The position numbers and the translations under genes are program-made. DNA of 33,770 nt, from the NCBI GenBank assembly GCA_017883135.1, contig JADGOE010000033.1, positions 1 through 33,770 on the forward strand. Reading direction: 5' to 3'. Below the pieces are notes generated by a model. It was not told where the DNA came from and ran no database searches. It saw nothing but the letters and a program-made list of their open reading frames with translations. Positions 12,673-31,108 of this stretch are shown piece after piece. Every line of letters begins with the position of its first letter. Position 1 is the stretch's first letter. This DNA is from Acidimicrobiales bacterium (GTDB taxonomy: Bacteria > Actinomycetota > Acidimicrobiia > Acidimicrobiales > RAAP-2).

Positions 12673-13005
12673 CTACTTGGCCTTGTTCAGCTTCGGAGCC
12701 GGGGCCTGTCCGTTCACGACCTTCTTGAACGTCGCGCCGGCCGAGACCTTGGGGCTCTTCGACGCCTTGATCTTGATGGTCTCACCCGTCTGCGGATTGC
12801 GTCCGTTACGAGCGGCGCGCTGGGCGCGATCGAACGTCAGGAACCCGGTGATGACGACTTTCTCGCCTTTGGCCACATTTGCAGTGACAACGTCTTCGAT
12901 GCCACCGAGGATGGTGGCGACGTCCTTGGAGGTCGAACCGGTGTGGGCGGCCACCGCGGCAATGAGATCGGTCTTGGTAAGGGGCAACAGTCTCTCCTTC
13001 GTCAT
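12673..13005 (-). CDS. HU family DNA-binding protein
   Basis: A nucleoid-associated dimeric DNA-bending protein (up to 110 aa). Seen: LTKTDLIAAVAAHTG (helix 1), GEKVVITGFLTFDRAQRAAR (core strands), and RNGRNPQTGETIKIKASKSP, the DNA-binding arm with its Pro; the tail is a short basic APAPKLNKAK. The start is uncertain: ATG at 13005 has a weak AGG upstream, while a TTG at 12987 has GGAG six bases before it and gives MPLTKTDLI, closer to the normal HU N-terminus. It is a second HU besides the long-tailed one at 25893. A strong hairpin follows the stop. Confidence 0.9.
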   Translation of the reverse strand: MTKERLLPLTKTDLIAAVAAHTGSTSKDVATILGGIEDVVTANVAKGEKVVITGFLTFDRAQRAARNGRNPQTGETIKIKASKSPKVSAGATFKKVVNGQAPAPKLNKAK

Positions 13006-24928: not shown

Positions 24929-25812
24929 CTCGGGGCGAGGTCGACTCCGGTGGCGGCCGGGGCCCGAGCGGCCTACCGGTCGGCGACCTGCTCCTACCCG
25001 GACCGGTCTCGGTGGACCTTCCGGTCCCACGATCTGCGTTGGCAGTCGGCGCTCATCCCGACGACATCGAGTTCGGGTGCGGTGCCACCCTTGCCAAGTG
25101 GGCCGCAGCCGGTTGCCGGATCCATCATCTGGTGCTGACCGACGGGTCCAAGGGCAGTTGGGACCCTGGCGCCGACCAGAGCCGACTGGTAATCCAGCGG
25201 ATGGACGAGTGCCGGGCATCGGCCGGTGTCATCGACCGCGCCGATGCTGGCTCGCCACCGCGTGCCGCGCCGGAGCAGGGCAGGAGGCCGGCGCGGGAGC
25301 TCGACCCGGACAGGGTCCTCTTCCTGCAACGGGTCGACGGCGAGTTGGTCAATGGACCCGAAGAACGGCGGGAGGTCGCTCGGATCGTTCGATCGTTCCG
25401 CCCGGAAGTGCTGCTCGGCCATGACCCCTGGCGCGGGTACCGCCTGCACCCCGACCACCGCGCCGCCGGCTTCCTCACCCTCGACGCCCTGGTCGGGGCT
25501 CGCGACCCCCACTTCTTTCGCGACCTCGGGCTCGCCCCCCATCGACCCGGGTCGCTGCTGCTGTGGGAGGCGGACCTTCCCAACCACGTCGAGGACGCCG
25601 GCGGCTTCGAATCGGTCAAAGTCGACGCCCTGCTCTGCCACCACAGCCAAGGCGAATCCACTCTGGGAATGAGTACCGCACCTGGTGACGACGGACCATC
25701 GGGCCCGGAATCCGAGGCCTTCGCATCGAAGGTGCGCCACCAGCTGGCCGACCACGGGTCGCTCGGCGGCCTACCGTCCGCAGAAGCGTTCCACCTGATG
25801 AACAACCTCTGA
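24925..25812 (+). CDS. PIG-L/LmbE family zinc deacetylase
   Basis: A zinc-dependent N-deacetylase (295 aa). Seen: the AHPDDIEFGCGATLAKW signature with zinc His44, Asp46 and Asp47, LVLTDGSKGSWDP, GELVNGPEERREVARIVRSF, HDPWRGYRLHPDHRAAG with zinc His near 175-178, and a final HHSQ. This is the LmbE fold that includes MshB and Mca of mycothiol metabolism and GlcNAc-PI deacetylases. No evidence singles out one substrate. It is translationally coupled to cofC (ATGA), an arrangement that may be functional or only positional. Ends just before a strong terminator. Confidence 0.88.
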   Translation: MTRGEVDSGGGRGPSGLPVGDLLLPGPVSVDLPVPRSALAVGAHPDDIEFGCGATLAKWAAAGCRIHHLVLTDGSKGSWDPGADQSRLVIQRMDECRASAGVIDRADAGSPPRAAPEQGRRPARELDPDRVLFLQRVDGELVNGPEERREVARIVRSFRPEVLLGHDPWRGYRLHPDHRAAGFLTLDALVGARDPHFFRDLGLAPHRPGSLLLWEADLPNHVEDAGGFESVKVDALLCHHSQGESTLGMSTAPGDDGPSGPESEAFASKVRHQLADHGSLGGLPSAEAFHLMNNL

Positions 25813-25828
25813 AGTGTCCCTCACGCGG

Positions 25829-25854
25829 CAGTAGGGGCCCGAAGGCCCCTACTG
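25829..25854 (+). terminator. Hairpin terminator after the PIG-L gene
   Basis: An 11-bp perfect stem (CAGTAGGGGCC / GGCCCCTACTG) with the stable tetraloop CGAA, 16 nt after the stop. A second small hairpin (CGGCGG / CCGCCG, 25864-25882) lies beside it and may serve the convergent HU gene. Confidence 0.85.
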
Positions 25855-25892
25855 ACAGCGCGACGGCGGCAAATACCCGCCGTTCGGTACGC

Positions 25893-26606
25893 CTACCGCC
25901 TGGCCTTGCGGACAGTCCGCCTGGCGGTGGACTTCCGTGCGGCCGTCTTGCGTGCCGGGGCCTTCCTCACTGCACGCTTGGCGGCAGTCTTCTTCGCTGC
26001 CGTCTTGCGGGCCGGAGCCTTCTTCACCGCACGCTTGGCGGCAGTCTTCTTCGCTGCCGTCTTGCGGGCCGGTGCCTTGCGGGCCGGGGCCTTCCTCACT
26101 GCACGCTTGGCGGCAGCCTTCTTCGCTGCCGTCTTGCGGGCCGGTGCCTTCTTCACCGCACGCTTGGCGGCAGTCTTCTTCGCTGCCGTCTTGCGGGCCG
26201 GAGCCTTGCGCGCCGGGGCCTTCTTCACCGCCCTTTTGGCCGTGGACTTGCGGGCCGCCGTCTTTTTGGCCGGAGCCTTGCGGGCGGTCCTCTTGGCTGC
26301 TGCCTTCTTTACTGCCATTAGTACTCCCTCCTTAGGGTTCAACGCCGATTTGAACGTCGAACCGGTGGCGAACCGGACACCCTTCGACGCAGGGATAGGT
26401 ACCACTGCACCAGTCCTCGGATTTCGGCCCACACGAGGACGACGATCGATCGGGGTGAATGCCCCGAAACCGATCACCGTGACTCTTCGTCCGGACCGAA
26501 CCTCAGTGACGATCGTCTCGAACAGCACATCAACTACATCTTCGACAACGCGGCGAGCCGAGTACGTCGACTCACTGACTGCTCTGACTAGTTGTGATTT
26601 GTTCAC
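25893..26606 (-). CDS. HU-family nucleoid protein with a long Ala/Lys/Arg tail
   Basis: A bipartite DNA-binding protein (237 aa). Residues 1-~90 are an HU fold: MNKSQLVRAVSE, VTVIGFGAFTPIDRRPRVGR, NPRTGAVVPIPASKGVRFATG (the DNA-binding arm). Residues ~97-237 are a repetitive basic tail of KKAPARK, TAAKKTAAKR and similar units, like the histone H1-like tails of actinobacterial HupB but longer and more regular. The GTG at 26606 has AGGAGGT upstream and gives the standard MNKS start; a GTG at 26612 is less likely. Oddity: a perfect AAGGAGG sits 8 nt before an in-frame ATG at 26318, exactly where the tail starts, so a tail-only protein of about 141 aa may also be made. A possible -35 TTGACC lies at 26662-26667 on this strand, with no convincing -10. 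It compacts DNA. Confidence 0.88.
   Translation of the reverse strand: MNKSQLVRAVSESTYSARRVVEDVVDVLFETIVTEVRSGRRVTVIGFGAFTPIDRRPRVGRNPRTGAVVPIPASKGVRFATGSTFKSALNPKEGVLMAVKKAAAKRTARKAPAKKTAARKSTAKRAVKKAPARKAPARKTAAKKTAAKRAVKKAPARKTAAKKAAAKRAVRKAPARKAPARKTAAKKTAAKRAVKKAPARKTAAKKTAAKRAVRKAPARKTAARKSTARRTVRKARR
25972..26201 (-). repeat. Tandem repeat encoding the HU basic tail
   Basis: A ~44-bp block starting GCACGCTTGGCGGCAG (plus strand) recurs at 25972, 26029, 26101 and 26158, spacings 57, 72 and 57. The pattern is a duplicated ~129-bp unit made of a 57-bp and a 72-bp part; the extra 15 bp adds one KAPAR motif. A more diverged fifth copy follows. Confidence 0.85.
26316..26333 (-). promoter_or_regulatory. 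Internal Shine-Dalgarno and ATG at the HU domain/tail junction
   Basis: On the minus strand, AAGGAGG (26333-26327) precedes ATG (26318-26316) by 8 nt, ideal ribosome spacing, and lies in frame inside the HU gene. In the full protein it encodes the linker Pro-Lys-Glu-Gly. This is the strongest ribosome site in the window. Confidence 0.7.
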
Positions 26607-26612
26607 GATCAC

Positions 26613-26896
26613 CTCCTCAGCGATACGTAACCACTACTAGCCAAATGGCATTTCACCCCCAGGTCAAGCACCCTCGGGCGCGTCGCAGGTGTGTTCGACC
26701 AACTTGCGCGTGCCACTTCTTCTTCCTCGCGGCGATGCTTGCTTCCTCCTGCGACTTTGCAAGAGAATAGCTATGGACAAAGAGCTGTTTGTTTGCAACG
26801 ATTATTCGCTACGGCATCTCTCTGCCGCCCTCGCGGAGTATTGCGTCCGCCATCTGCAGCTTCCTTCACATGAGCCCATGATCGGACGATTTTCGA
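26613..26896 (+). other. Gene-free stretch between HU and the conjugation remnant
   Basis: About 280 bp, clearly lower in GC than its surroundings. It should hold the minus-strand HU promoter at its left side. A frame from 26689 (up to 96 aa) has no family likeness and no ribosome site. The composition change near 26640 marks the probable left limit of the accessory island. Confidence 0.5.
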
Positions 26897-28377
26897 GTGA
26901 CAAACTTTTTTCCGCCAATGCCCTCACAACCCGTCACAATGTCGCATCGCGCAGTGTTGCGCGCGTCCACCGCTGCTGAGCACGGTGTGTACCTGGGTCA
27001 CAACGAACGCGGTTGGTGGCACGTTCAACCGCAACAATCGGTGATGATCCTGGGTCCACCGCGTTCGGGAAAGACGACGTCGTTGATCATCCCCAACGTG
27101 CTGACGCGCAATGGACCGGTACTTTCTACGTCGACCAAACCCGACGTGTTGGACGCAACCATCGGCGCGCGTTCGGGTGTCGGGCGGTGCTTCCTCTTCG
27201 ACCCGACCGGTTCGCTGGGGCCGAGGCGTGCACTGCCCCCTTGCGGTGGTCGCCGCTGCAGTCGTGCACCACCTGGATGGCGTCGCTTTCCATGGCCCGG
27301 GCACTGGTGGAGGTGGGCTCGGCCACCACCGCGCGAGGCGTTCAGCGCAGCGACGGATCGCATTGGAGTGAACGGGCCCAAGCCCTGATGGCACCGTTGA
27401 TGCACGCCGCTGCCCTGGACGGTGCGGACATGCGCACCGTCTTGACGTGGGTCGATCGCCGCCAAGCACTGCCGGCCCAGCAGATTCTGGCCGGAGAGCC
27501 GGGTTCGGCGACCGAGCTTGCCCGGAACCTGCTCGACGGGATCGTCGCCACCGACGAGCGGGAGCTCAGCGGCATCTGGTCCACCGCTTCGGGCTCGTTG
27601 AGCGGATTCCGCTCCGACCAGGCCCTGGCCGCCACCGCCGATCCTGATTTCGACGCGAACCGGTTCGTCGACTCCTCGGACACCATCTACATCGCCTCGC
27701 CTGCCCATCACCAAGCCCTGGTGTCACCGATGGTGGTGGGGCTGATCGACGACATCCGCCAGGCCACCTACAGCCGCGGAGCCACGGAGGCATCTCATCG
27801 AGACAGCCCGGTCCTGTTGGCACTCGACGAAGTGGCCAACATCGCGCCGATCCCCGACCTTCCGGCGATGATCAGCGAAGGAGGAGGACAAGGGCTCGTG
27901 ACCATGGCCTGCTTTCAGGATCTCTCGCAGGCCCGACACCGGTGGCCGACCCAGGCGGACGGGTTCCCCTCGCTGTTCGGAACCACAGTCGTCCTCCCCG
28001 GCATCGGAGACGTGCGAACGCTGGAGGCGTTGTCGGTCCTGGCCGGCGAGGAGGAGATCGCCACGCGGACGGTCTCCAGGGGCCGCACACTCACCGATCA
28101 CCCCCTGATCGACTTCGCATCCGGTGGGAGGCCCCAGTTCGGTGAGAACGTGTCCACCCAGTGGCGGCGCCGCCTCCCGGCCGACGTGATCGCACGAGGC
28201 TCCAGCGGGCACGCGCTGGCCTTCGACGAGCGCAACCGCCCAGGTTGGGTCCCCCTCGCCCCGTCCCACGCCGTCGAGCCGTGGCGCTCGTTGCGCAACC
28301 TCGAGGTCGCCCTCGATCGCGGAACCTCGCTGCGCAGCGGTCGCGCACATCAGACGGGACCCGATCTTCACCGGTGA
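26897..28377 (+). pseudogene. Conjugative coupling ATPase (TraG/VirD4-like, soluble), frameshifted
   Basis: Couples a relaxase-DNA complex to a type IV secretion channel. Frame 1 (from ~26897) gives GVYLGHNERGWWHVQPQQSV, the Walker A MILGPPRSGKTTSLI, NGPVLSTSTKPDVLDATIGA and FLFDPTGS. After the G-run 27217-27220 the sense moves to the next frame: EACTAPLRWSPLQSCTTW, then VLLALDEVANIAPIPDLPAM (Walker B) and GLVTMACFQDLSQARHRW, to the stop at 28377. One extra G would make the ~490-aa protein continuous. It lacks the usual N-terminal membrane helices, so it is a soluble type or is truncated. Start uncertain (GTG 26897 or ATG 26918/26939). It faces the relaxase remnant tail to tail, 20 bp apart. 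Confidence 0.8.
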
Positions 28378-28397
28378 CGGGAGCGGTCCCCTTCGAA

Positions 28398-29504
28398 TCA
28401 TCGATCGATCTGGTGCGACTGGTGGTGGGGACGATGCCTGGCAACGGCAGCCAGACCGGCATGGTCGATCAGGTGACTGTCGGCCACCCGACCGAGCTGG
28501 TCGGGCACCCGTGCCGCCGACACCTCGGTGGAGTGGGCCGCTGCAGGCACCAGGACCTCTGGCCGGTGCTCGACGGCCCGTGCCACCGCCGAAGCCTCCC
28601 AACGGGGCTCAAAGGAGCGGTTGCCGGAAACGGGTGCGCCCGCTGCCTCGGCCATCGAGGCGGCGACCGACTCGACCACCTGAGCGGTCGCCCCGTGCAC
28701 GGTCGCGGCCGACACCACGGCAACCAGGTCGCGCCGGGCCAGCCACCGATGGGTGCAGGAGAGCTCGTCGATGCGGGCACCGATCCGCTGGTGGTCGACG
28801 AGCGGTGCGGGTTCGGCTCCCCTGGCGAGCCCGACCACCCGGGTGAGGTCACCGAGGTCGAAACCGAAGTCGGCCGCCCGCTGCTTCCATTCGGGCAGCA
28901 GACCGCCGACGGTGCGGGCACGGTCCTTGTCCGGTCTCGTCGCATGGAACACCCCACGTCGTCGGAACGCACCATCTCCGGGAACCGCCCGGAGGTGCAC
29001 GTACTCGTCCATGTCCGCCGAGCGTTGGGAGAACAGGTGGCGCAGCCTTCTGTCGACACCGGCCACGTCGCCCAGTCCGGAACGTTGCACCTCCCACCGA
29101 GCACCGAGCCGCTCGGAGAGCTCGAATCGGAGGCGCGCGTGGTAGATCCCCTGTCCGGCCCGCAGGTGGGCGTGGATCCGTCGGCTGTCCACGGCCGACC
29201 ACACCCCGTCCACCCCCTGGGCCACGTTGGCCACCACCAGGTGGGTGTGAAGATGGGGATCGAGGGTCCGGCTGGTCCGATGCAGGAACTCCCCCGCCGC
29301 CGCGCCCGTCGAGGACACCAGTGCGACCTGGCCACCTCGGCTCCTGCGCACGCCTACCGCCTCCCGTTCGAGATATGCGGTGGCCTCGGCCACCGCCGCA
29401 CCGTGGGCGGCTCCGGTCGCGCCGCCGATCTCGCCTGGACCAAGCAGGTGGAGCAGGCTCACCGATTTCGGCGCACAGAATACAGCACCTGGGTCTACTA
29501 GTCC
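28398..29504 (-). pseudogene. MobF/TrwC-type relaxase, N-terminus removed
   Basis: A conjugative relaxase that nicks the transfer origin. Seen: FCAPKSVSLLHLLG, RRSRGGQVALVSSTGAAAGEFLHR, the metal-binding three-His motif DPHLHTHLVVANVAQG, and SRRIHAHLRAGQGIYHARLR, all standard for TrwC domains. The usual first ~80-100 residues, with the catalytic Tyr, are absent: homology stops near 29500 and the frame runs on only into the antisense of the recombinase gene. There is no helicase domain; the protein ends after ~360 residues. Read as the 3' part of a relaxase gene split by integration of the recombinase-bearing element. The missing 5' part was not found to the right in this window, so it was lost or lies elsewhere. 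Confidence 0.8.
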
Positions 29505-29512
29505 CCTAGCCT
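29488..29512. other. Candidate attachment-site arm (attL) next to the recombinase
   Basis: Relaxase homology ends and the recombinase promoter begins within this ~25-bp stretch, which contains the near-palindrome CTAGTCCCCTAG. Serine integrase genes normally lie immediately beside one attachment site. No second copy of the core was found by eye up to 33770, so the other end is unidentified. Confidence 0.4.
29507..29512 (+). promoter_or_regulatory. -10 box TAGCCT, likely leaderless start of the serine recombinase
   Basis: TAGCCT ends 6 nt before the ATG at 29519, with no Shine-Dalgarno. It lies at the edge of the candidate attachment site, so integration could change its -35 context. Confidence 0.45.
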
Positions 29513-29518
29513 CGTGAG

Positions 29519-31108
29519 ATGGCCCCCGATCTGCGAGCCGCGATCTACACCCGAGTGAGCATCGAGAAGGTTGAGAAGGACACGCTCGAACGGCAGGAGT
29601 CTGACTGCCGAGAGTTGGCAAGGGTTCGTGGCTTTGAAGTTGTTGAGATCTTCACGGATGAACTGAGCGCTTTCAAGCGAGGCGTCGTGCGAGAGCAGTA
29701 CGACCGCATGAAGGCTGGGATCGTTGAAGGACGGTTCAACGCCATCCTTGCCTATCGACTCGACCGGCTTTCACGGTCGCTATCTGAGGCACTGAAGCTC
29801 ATCGAACTGCTCGAAGATCACGGGGCCGCCCTCGTTTTCGTTAACGGAGATGTCGACACCTCGGGTCGAATGGGAAAGGCCTTCTTCCAGATCTCGGCGG
29901 TATTCGCCGAACTTGAGGCAGCCACCACATCGGAACGGCTTCGCAACGCCAATGCAGCTAATGCAGCAAAGGGCCTTCCTCCAACCGGTGGACGCCGATG
30001 CTACGGCTTCGTTGGCAAAGGCGAGCGGCAAGGACACTTGATACCTGAAGAAGCTGAGATGCTTCGCCAGGCTGCCCAAGACATAAGTGAAGGATTCTCG
30101 CTCCGTGAGACCACGAGACGGATGAACGAGCGGGGAAGTCGAACCACGATGGACAACGAGTGGTCGCCACGATCACTCGTCAAATGTCTCAAGAGTCCAA
30201 GGTTACGAGGCAAGCGGACACACCAGCCCGATCCTGGCGTCCCCGCCATCCTCACGGACGGCCACTTCAAGGACGGAACCCCTTGGGATGTGGTGTTCAC
30301 TGAAGACGAGCACCTTTACCTCATCAACCGCATCAATAGGGCGGGAGAGCGCTACAGGGGTAGTTCGAAGCGAAAGGGAAACCAGCATCTCCTCACTGGA
30401 TTGGCAATCTGTGGCAAGTGCGGACACCGACTCGGCTATGGCCGAATCAAGGGTAAGGGTGCCAACAGCCCCAAGGTCTATCCTCGATATACCTGTCAAC
30501 GCGCACCGGGGTCGCTCGCCTGCGGAAATCTGTCTGTGGCCGAGGACTCGCTCGACAGGTACGTGGTTTCACATGTCAGGGAGTTCGGGCACAACTTTGT
30601 TGAGCTTGCCGAAGATCGCCGCAGGGCCATTGAGGACGTGATCGCACAAGACGAACAGGATCTCGCCACTTGCAGGCATTCGCTGGCAGACCTTGCAAGG
30701 GAAAGGTACTCCCCCAACTCGCCAATCACCGATGAGTTGTACGCGGAGCTTCAGCCCCCTCTTGTGGATCGCATTGCGAGTCTGACCGAGAAACTCTCTC
30801 GCCCTCGTGCCGAGCTTGAAGCACTACCGGTCGGACCTAAATGGGTACGTGGCCGACTTTCTCAGATCCCGAAGGACGTAGATGGGCGAGAGTACCTCCG
30901 CAGCTTCTTGAAAGCCGTCGAAGTAATGCCAGCCGAGAAACAGGGCGGACGGTTTGATGGATCTCGGGTGGTACTTCACTGGATCGGGGGCGATGTCACC
31001 CACGACGAGGATGTCGCTGCGCTGGTCGACACCGAGGACGCTATCTGGGACATGCCGGTCGCATTCGACTTAGCCGGAGAGTCATCGTCACATCGCACTA
31101 CAGACTGA
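29519..31108 (+). CDS. Large serine recombinase (site-specific integrase)
   Basis: Catalyses integration or excision of a mobile element through a phosphoserine intermediate (529 aa). Seen: catalytic domain starting AAIYTRVSIEK with Ser14 and the Arg before it, LERQESDCRELA, AYRLDRLSRSL with the active-site Arg pair, FFQISAVFAELE; the recombinase domain with PPTGGRRCYGF and WSPRSLVKCLKSPRLRGKR; a zinc ribbon of CGKCGHRL and a Cys pair in CQRAPGSLACG; then a coiled-coil-rich C-terminus. All parts look intact, so it could be active. Codon use is visibly less GC-biased than in chromosomal neighbours (many codons ending in A or T), a sign of recent transfer. Start ATG at 29519 after a TAGCCT box. 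It begins where the relaxase gene is broken. Confidence 0.92.
   Translation: MAPDLRAAIYTRVSIEKVEKDTLERQESDCRELARVRGFEVVEIFTDELSAFKRGVVREQYDRMKAGIVEGRFNAILAYRLDRLSRSLSEALKLIELLEDHGAALVFVNGDVDTSGRMGKAFFQISAVFAELEAATTSERLRNANAANAAKGLPPTGGRRCYGFVGKGERQGHLIPEEAEMLRQAAQDISEGFSLRETTRRMNERGSRTTMDNEWSPRSLVKCLKSPRLRGKRTHQPDPGVPAILTDGHFKDGTPWDVVFTEDEHLYLINRINRAGERYRGSSKRKGNQHLLTGLAICGKCGHRLGYGRIKGKGANSPKVYPRYTCQRAPGSLACGNLSVAEDSLDRYVVSHVREFGHNFVELAEDRRRAIEDVIAQDEQDLATCRHSLADLARERYSPNSPITDELYAELQPPLVDRIASLTEKLSRPRAELEALPVGPKWVRGRLSQIPKDVDGREYLRSFLKAVEVMPAEKQGGRFDGSRVVLHWIGGDVTHDEDVAALVDTEDAIWDMPVAFDLAGESSSHRTTD

What the first reader, a model, noticed from the sequence alone, without database searches (positions are those of the whole stretch)
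26316..26333. Consensus ribosome site inside an HU gene, at the domain junction: two proteins from one frame
AAGGAGG stands 8 nt before an in-frame ATG precisely between the HU fold and the Ala/Lys/Arg tail, and its bases double as the linker codons. It is a better ribosome site than most gene starts here. It predicts a full 237-aa HU-tail protein plus a free ~141-aa H1-like tail from the same mRNA. Actinobacterial HupB-type proteins are known as single bipartite chains; an internal start at the junction is, to my knowledge, not described.
Basis: partly seen in the sequence, partly recalled or inferred. Interest (0 to 1): 0.75.

Follow-up and report, generated by a model that had tools for sequence, protein, structure and literature searches.

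The report
Conserved second start inside HU gene
In one group of uncultured actinobacteria, a DNA-packing gene carries a conserved second ribosome start between its two halves, which predicts both a two-part HU-histone protein and a free histone-like tail from one message.

Summary
Confirmed and strengthened, by sequence comparison only. The HU-tail gene (minus strand, 26606-25893, 237 aa) has AAGGAGG (26333-26327), 8 nt, then ATG (26318-26316), six residues after the HU domain ends; the 141-aa tail matches Pfam HC2 (H1-like) over its cut-off. All 23 genes of this type found in 172 family genomes keep the site: same spacing, ATG, GCA as next codon, no stop between the halves. The likely sister clade (3 genomes) has the SD in another codon register, with GTG or ATG. 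None of 85 other HU-tail genes has it. Caveat: given the amino acids, an SD this strong is expected in about 69% of genes, so the SD bases alone prove little. The stronger signal lies upstream: codons -24 to -8 have almost no synonymous change (0.7 against 6.3 per column), not so in other families, and hold a hairpin ending just before the SD; its codons favour folding, but covariation is not significant. I read it as a selected internal initiation site with an RNA element in front. Translation is not shown. New variant of a known kind.

The parts
25893..26606 (-). HU-tail gene, GTG start at 26606, stop 25895-25893, 237 aa
   Evidence: Pfam PF00216 at residues 1-90 and PF07382 from residue 97
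26337..26606 (-). HU domain (PF00216)
   Evidence: 84.4 bits over cut-off 22.4; 83.9 bits
26340..26390 (-). Block of synonymous constraint (codons -24 to -8 relative to the internal Met)
   Evidence: 11 columns mean 0.73 synonymous changes against 6.31 in 26 other columns; permutation p 5e-6, scan-corrected 1e-5; not seen in 68 HU genes of other families
26336..26363 (-). Predicted hairpin GGUUCGACG(UUCAAAUCGG)CGUUGAACC ending 2 nt before the SD
   Evidence: 95.8% of cells paired, covariation not above shuffles; more stable than synonymous shuffles, mean z -2.6, 22 of 23 below -1
26362..26376 (-). Second short inverted repeat CCGGT-TCGCC-ACCGG, overlapping the hairpin by 2 nt (weak)
   Evidence: by eye; helix 3 of the RNAalifold structure, 99% of cells paired but hardly varying
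26327..26333 (-). Internal Shine-Dalgarno AAGGAGG (doubles as linker codons AAG GAG G)
   Evidence: AAGGAGG in 20 and GAGGAGG in 3 of 23 family genes
26316..26318 (-). Internal ATG start
   Evidence: ATG in 23 of 23 family genes; GTG, ATG, GTG in the 3 genes of clade f9
25896..26318 (-). Predicted free H1-like tail, 141 aa
   Evidence: HC2 match 48.5 bits, cut-off 40

Best explanation
One mRNA of an HU-tail gene is translated from two in-frame starts. Ribosomes that begin at the GTG make the full HU-H1-like chain; ribosomes that bind AAGGAGG in the linker begin at the internal ATG and make the H1-like tail alone. The hairpin just upstream of the internal SD probably keeps that site open or otherwise tunes its use. 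Shown: sequence, conservation, synonymous constraint, phylogenetic restriction. Inferred: actual initiation, two products, the hairpin's role, and that the free tail binds nucleic acid by itself like Hc1/Hc2-type proteins and so shifts the ratio of dimeric HU-tail to free polycation in the nucleoid.
For: 23 of 23 family genes keep SD, 16 nt from SD window to ATG, ATG and an open frame through both halves. Internal SD energy -11.1 to -12.0 kcal/mol in the 23, strongest site inside the gene in 24 of 26 genes including f9. Next codon GCA 23/23 with zero changes on the tree, while GCA is 14.6% of tail and 18.0% of HU Ala codons. Linker residue K becomes E in 3 genes with the SD kept (GAGGAGG). Clade f9, next to f1 in the HU tree (support 0.874), has AAAGGAGG/AAGGGAGG one register off with GTG/ATG/GTG. 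0 of 85 other HU-tail genes have an SD-backed start in the 30 codons after HU. Synonymous block and hairpin; SD predicted more open than with synonymous-shuffled upstream codons in 21 of 23, mean 0.60 against 0.49. HC2 match begins at the internal Met.
Against: No expression data. Given the amino acids, an SD of this strength arises with P about 0.69 per gene in f1 and 0.25 in f9, so SD bases alone are weak evidence. Conservation in f1 and f9 is probably one origin, not many independent ones; f9 has only 3 genomes. Hairpin covariation is not above shuffles, and longer segments fold less convincingly (mean z -1.27 for -24..-6, -0.40 for -24..+4). The internal ATG is not consistently open (mean 0.52). 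Two genes (G003, G077) have other sites as strong as the internal SD. The literature notes that internal SD-plus-AUG pairs are not generally depleted (PMC6107199, passages).
Confidence: 0.8

Rival explanations
1. The linker K-E-x-x-x-M-A-V is conserved for the protein alone (for example a cap on the HU fold or a hinge); the SD and ATG are a by-product.
For: P of an SD this strong given the amino acids is about 0.69 in f1; a Met in a linker can be structural.
Against: Synonymous constraint and invariant GCA cannot come from amino acids; K to E charge swap with SD kept in 3 genes; f9 has other residues (KGG-IP-V/M) but again SD plus start codon; 0 of 85 other HU-tail genes have it.
Confidence: 0.12
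2. An internal promoter inside the HU coding part makes a short mRNA for the tail; the constrained block is promoter DNA and the SD/ATG serve that transcript.
For: The block lies where a promoter would lie relative to the start; hairpin covariation is not significant, so a DNA signal is not excluded.
Against: No sigma-70-like site in 25800-26800 (only that consensus was scanned); codons in the block favour RNA folding; the block sequence occurs once exactly in the genome.
Confidence: 0.12
3. The SD is a programmed ribosome pause between domains that helps the HU fold form before the sticky tail is made; no initiation.
For: Position exactly at the domain junction.
Against: A pause needs no ATG or GTG at fixed spacing and no GCA after it; whether SD-like motifs pause ribosomes at all is disputed (PMC6107199, passages).
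Confidence: 0.04
4. Chance site or relic of an old separate tail gene, without present function.
For: Such pairs do occur by chance: 2 in 8,390 internal codons of the window's long ORFs.
Against: Kept in 23 of 23 genes across 5 genera while the synonymous sites elsewhere in the gene are only about half identical (0.51).
Confidence: 0.02

Closest known systems
Actinobacterial HupB/HupS-type HU with basic C-terminal tail (mycobacteria, Streptomyces)
   Same: HU domain followed by a long Lys/Ala/Arg tail in one frame; PMC5676037 (passages) describes HupB as an HU with an extra C-terminal domain and finds it needed for nucleoid binding.
   Different: Here an SD and ATG stand at the junction; the 22 tailed HU genes sampled from the phylum have none by the same test. 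The Pro/Lys/Ala repeats differ too.
In-frame internal-start genes of bacteria (CheA short form, IF2 forms, ClpA 65-kDa form; N-terminal proteoforms mapped by Ribo-RET)
   Same: Second SD and start inside a gene, same frame, shorter C-terminal product. PMC9094748 (passages) reports many such isoform starts in Mycobacterium tuberculosis; PMC11005335 (one passage, a reference on ClpA). CheA and IF2 are recalled.
   Different: Not an HU or histone-like gene in what I saw; here the start sits exactly between two nucleic-acid-binding modules and has a constrained hairpin block in front.
Stand-alone H1-like proteins Hc2 (PF07382) and Burkholderia-type (NF038053)
   Same: Tail scores over the Pfam HC2 cut-off, from the internal Met on.
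   Different: NCBIfam scores stay below cut-off; no separate gene for it in this genome, it is nested in HU.

Membership tests
HupB-type tailed HU | HU (PF00216) domain at the N-terminus | tested here: met
   84.4 bits, cut-off 22.4
HupB-type tailed HU | Long basic, low-complexity C-terminal tail in the same frame | tested here: met
   141 aa tail of A/K/R/P/T/V/S after residue 96
HupB-type tailed HU | Acts as a nucleoid protein | not testable with these tools
   needs cells or binding assays
In-frame internal-start genes | SD plus start codon inside the gene, same frame, no stop between | tested here: met
   26 of 26 genes of f1 and f9
In-frame internal-start genes | Site conserved beyond the amino-acid need | tested here: met
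   GCA 23/23 and synonymous block; but SD bases alone not clearly beyond need
In-frame internal-start genes | Both products detected | not testable with these tools
   no proteomic or ribosome data at hand
H1-like HC2 (PF07382) | Scores over the curated Pfam cut-off | tested here: met
   48.5 bits against 40 for the full protein, residues 97-170; low-complexity caution
H1-like HC2 (NCBIfam NF038052) | Scores over the NCBIfam cut-off | tested here: not met
   42.5 and 45.5 bits against 135

The most novel reading that the evidence does not exclude
The coding part of HU holds a conserved RNA switch: the hairpin block upstream of the internal SD sets the ratio of HU-tail dimers to free H1-like tail, so that one gene encodes both a core-like and a linker-like nucleoid protein and regulates their balance in translation, possibly by HU binding its own mRNA.
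Probability: 0.3. Interest if true: 0.85.

Novelty: new variant of a known kind. Interest (0 to 1): 0.62.

Why it matters
If the tail is made on its own, one bacterial gene supplies both a DNA-bending dimer with a tethered tail and a free H1-like polycation, at a ratio fixed in translation. That would give a direct genetic handle on what the tail does by itself: change the internal start without changing the HU domain. It would also mean that annotation of HU-tail genes in this group misses a protein, and that a HU coding sequence carries an RNA element.

Tried and rejected
Codon choice at the SD as proof: rejected, since the amino acids give an equal SD with P about 0.69.

Hairpin proven by covariation: not reached. 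For the 9-bp stem, 192 of 500 shuffles match the number of two-sided changes and 174 of 500 the covariation score. The longer RNAalifold structure beats most shuffles (14 of 500 reach its score) but this rests on a single pair, columns 21-69, so I do not use it.

Overlapping reading frame as cause of the block: frame +1 has a TGA in 23 of 23 genes at codons -9/-8 and frame +2 a TAA only in part of them; a GTG in frame +1 is absent in 4 genes by eye. No conserved overlapping ORF seen; one antisense frame is open through the displayed stretch in the rows printed, which I did not follow further.

Known RNA family: no Rfam match near its gathering score. Sigma-70 promoter: none found. Second tail gene in the genome: only a partial low-complexity match on contig 88. 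Block as a repeated operator: one exact site, and one site with 3 mismatches.

Paper searches for a described internal start in HU, HupB or histone-like genes; none of their listings shows one. The library lacks most subscription journals, so this is weak evidence of novelty.

Rows dropped: 1 gene (L162, failed the motif check) and 7 loci taken out by hand (3 of f9; 4 second copies of a gene already in the set). In one search, 6 of 69 order genes and 22 of 44 phylum genes were set aside as tailless (tail under 25 aa or under 12% K+R). Of the places listed, 9 weaker ones were not fetched; of the places listed I fetched 40, chosen for long open frames, and used 4 of the 30 loci given. For the alignment, three identical rows (G017, G036, G075) were given once: 21 of 23.

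Full report
What is there. The window is contig 72 of a 2.96-Mb, 126-contig assembly. On the minus strand, 26606-25893 encodes 237 aa: HU (PF00216, residues 1-90), six linker residues PKEGVL, then a 141-aa A/K/R-rich tail. Inside the linker codons CCT AAG GAG GGA GTA CTA lies AAGGAGG, and 8 nt later ATG GCA GTA AAG AAG. The Pfam H1-like family HC2 matches from residue 97, the internal Met, at 48.5 bits against a cut-off of 40; tail matches of this kind rest on low-complexity sequence, and the NCBIfam equivalents stay below their cut-offs. A second, canonical HU gene lies at 12981-12712 on the same strand.

Is it more than chance in this gene? The internal SD pairs with an anti-SD string at -11.6 kcal/mol against -12.4 for the main start, and nothing else in the gene reaches it. 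In the window's long ORFs 2 in-frame start codons in 8,390 internal codons have such an SD, so a single case would be worth little; conservation decides.

Relatives. A profile of this HU-tail type (A1) found strong matches (E 1e-49 or better) in 23 of 172 genomes of the family, in 5 genera. In all 23 the junction reads (A/G)AGGAGG, then ATG at the same distance, then GCA, with an open frame across. 17 of the 23 genes are complete at the 3' end, with tails of 31 to 288 aa; 6 run off a contig. The G033 tail (288 aa) includes 4 codons with N. In 22 of the 23 the internal Met is the only Met in the tail. Relatives with public names are MAGs titled Acidimicrobiales, Acidimicrobiaceae or Actinomycetes bacterium.

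Wider comparison. In a draw of 397 genomes of the order, 81 had an HU match at E <= 1e-24. Of 69 HU genes of other families examined, 63 have a basic tail and 0 of these have an SD-backed in-frame start within 30 codons after HU; likewise 0 of 22 tailed genes among 44 HU loci taken from the phylum search, which includes a few of the same order and class. The exception is family f9: all 3 genomes held read AAC AAA GGA GGA GCG ATT CCC GTG, AAC AAG GGA GGA GAG ATA CCA ATG and AAC AAA GGA GGA ACT ATT CCA GTG. There the SD is in another register, the residues differ (KGG-IP-V/M against KE(G/E)--M), and the start is GTG or ATG. In a tree of 94 HU domains f1 and f9 group together (support 0.874; f1 alone 0.997; f9 0.84), which fits one origin. 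GGA is 7 of 27 Gly codons elsewhere in the three f9 genes, yet 6 of 6 here.

Beyond the amino acids? For the SD itself, hardly: keeping the residues and drawing codons by the genes' own usage gives an SD of -11 or better with mean P 0.69 in f1 and about 0.25 in f9. Three things do go beyond. First, the codon after ATG is GCA in 23 of 23 with no change on the tree, while GCA is 14.6% of Ala codons in the tails and 18.0% in the HU parts. Second, at linker position -5 Lys becomes Glu in 3 genes and the SD survives as GAGGAGG. Third, the block described next.

The constrained block. Counting synonymous changes on a tree of the 23 genes, columns with at least fourfold codons and a residue kept in 20 or more genes show a mean of 6.31 changes (26 columns) upstream, but 0.73 (11 columns) in codons -24 to -8 before the internal Met; permutation p 5e-6, and 1e-5 when the best run of 11 columns is sought in shuffled orders. 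The limits of the block were set after seeing the data; the second test allows for that. The contrast holds with a tree built without the block (0.73 against 6.23) and with a protein tree (0.73 against 7.04). Among 21 non-redundant genes, codons are identical at 0.89 of residue-identical places in the block against 0.51 upstream. In 68 HU genes of other families the same columns are not quiet: 29, 28, 20 and 18 changes at -24, -23, -20 and -8, in the range of other columns. So the constraint goes with the internal start, not with HU as such.

The hairpin. The block ends in a stem GGUUCGACG/CGUUGAACC with a 10-nt loop, 2 nt before the SD. 95.8% of cells pair and one row shows G-C to A-U, but covariation is not above shuffles (192 and 174 of 500). 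Against synonymous shuffles the hairpin stretch is more stable (mean z -2.60; 22 of 23 below -1), two control stretches are not (0.39 and -0.37), and longer stretches are weaker (-1.27, -0.40). With the natural upstream codons the SD is predicted more open than with shuffled ones in 21 of 23 genes (mean 0.60 against 0.49); the ATG is not specially open (0.52). A DNA signal in the block is not excluded; no sigma-70-like promoter and no Rfam family was found.

How it most likely works. Two initiation sites on one mRNA: GTG for HU-tail and ATG for the free tail. Both SDs are strong: in 12 of the 23 family genes the internal energy is the lower one or the main site has no better, and overall the main sites range from -8.6 to -12.4 against -11.1 to -12.0 for the internal ones (the 12 is my count: G009, G012, G008, G003, G005, G011, G006, G002, G010 and G032 have a lower internal energy, that is 10 strictly, so read it as 10 of 23). 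Selection keeps the frame open between the halves in 23 of 23 genes, which suggests the full chain matters as well. The function of the free tail is inferred from its H1-like composition. That one isoform or both occur in cells is not shown.

What is known. HupB is described with an additional C-terminal domain needed for nucleoid association (PMC5676037, passages). Internal in-frame starts are common in mapped translatomes, including hundreds of isoform ORFs in M. tuberculosis, a large part of which may be noise in the authors' words (PMC9094748, passages). Internal SD-AUG pairs are not generally depleted in genes (PMC6107199, passages). Ten paper searches listed nothing on an internal start in an HU gene; several of these were narrow and returned no paper at all. 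I file it as a new variant of the known kind 'in-frame internal start', in a HupB-like gene.

Noticed in passing
26340-26344 (minus strand; codons -9/-8 before the internal Met): Frame +1 carries a TGA stop here in 23 of 23 family genes, about 20 nt before the internal ATG. It may just follow from the conserved TTGA of the hairpin arm, or could serve termination and re-initiation of slipped ribosomes.
   Followed up: partly
12712-12981 (minus) and 26337-26606 (minus): Two HU genes about 13.6 kb apart on one contig, one canonical without a tail and one tailed. In G012 the two also lie about 13 kb apart.
   Followed up: no
26897-31108: Next to the gene lie ORFs that look by eye like a conjugative coupling protein, a relaxase and a serine recombinase, suggesting an integrated mobile element. 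Not tested with any family search.
   Followed up: no
L210 about 1205-1658 (contig 88): Another protein with an AAKKAPAKK tail on a coiled-coil-like, phasin-like body, upstream of a TlyA-like ORF (names by eye).
   Followed up: no
L160, L178, L182 (G348, G392, G324): HU genes of family f61 end 11 residues after the HU domain's last Asn with a stop, while other f61 genomes (L041/L147, L187) have a repeat tail: tail gain or loss within one family.
   Followed up: no
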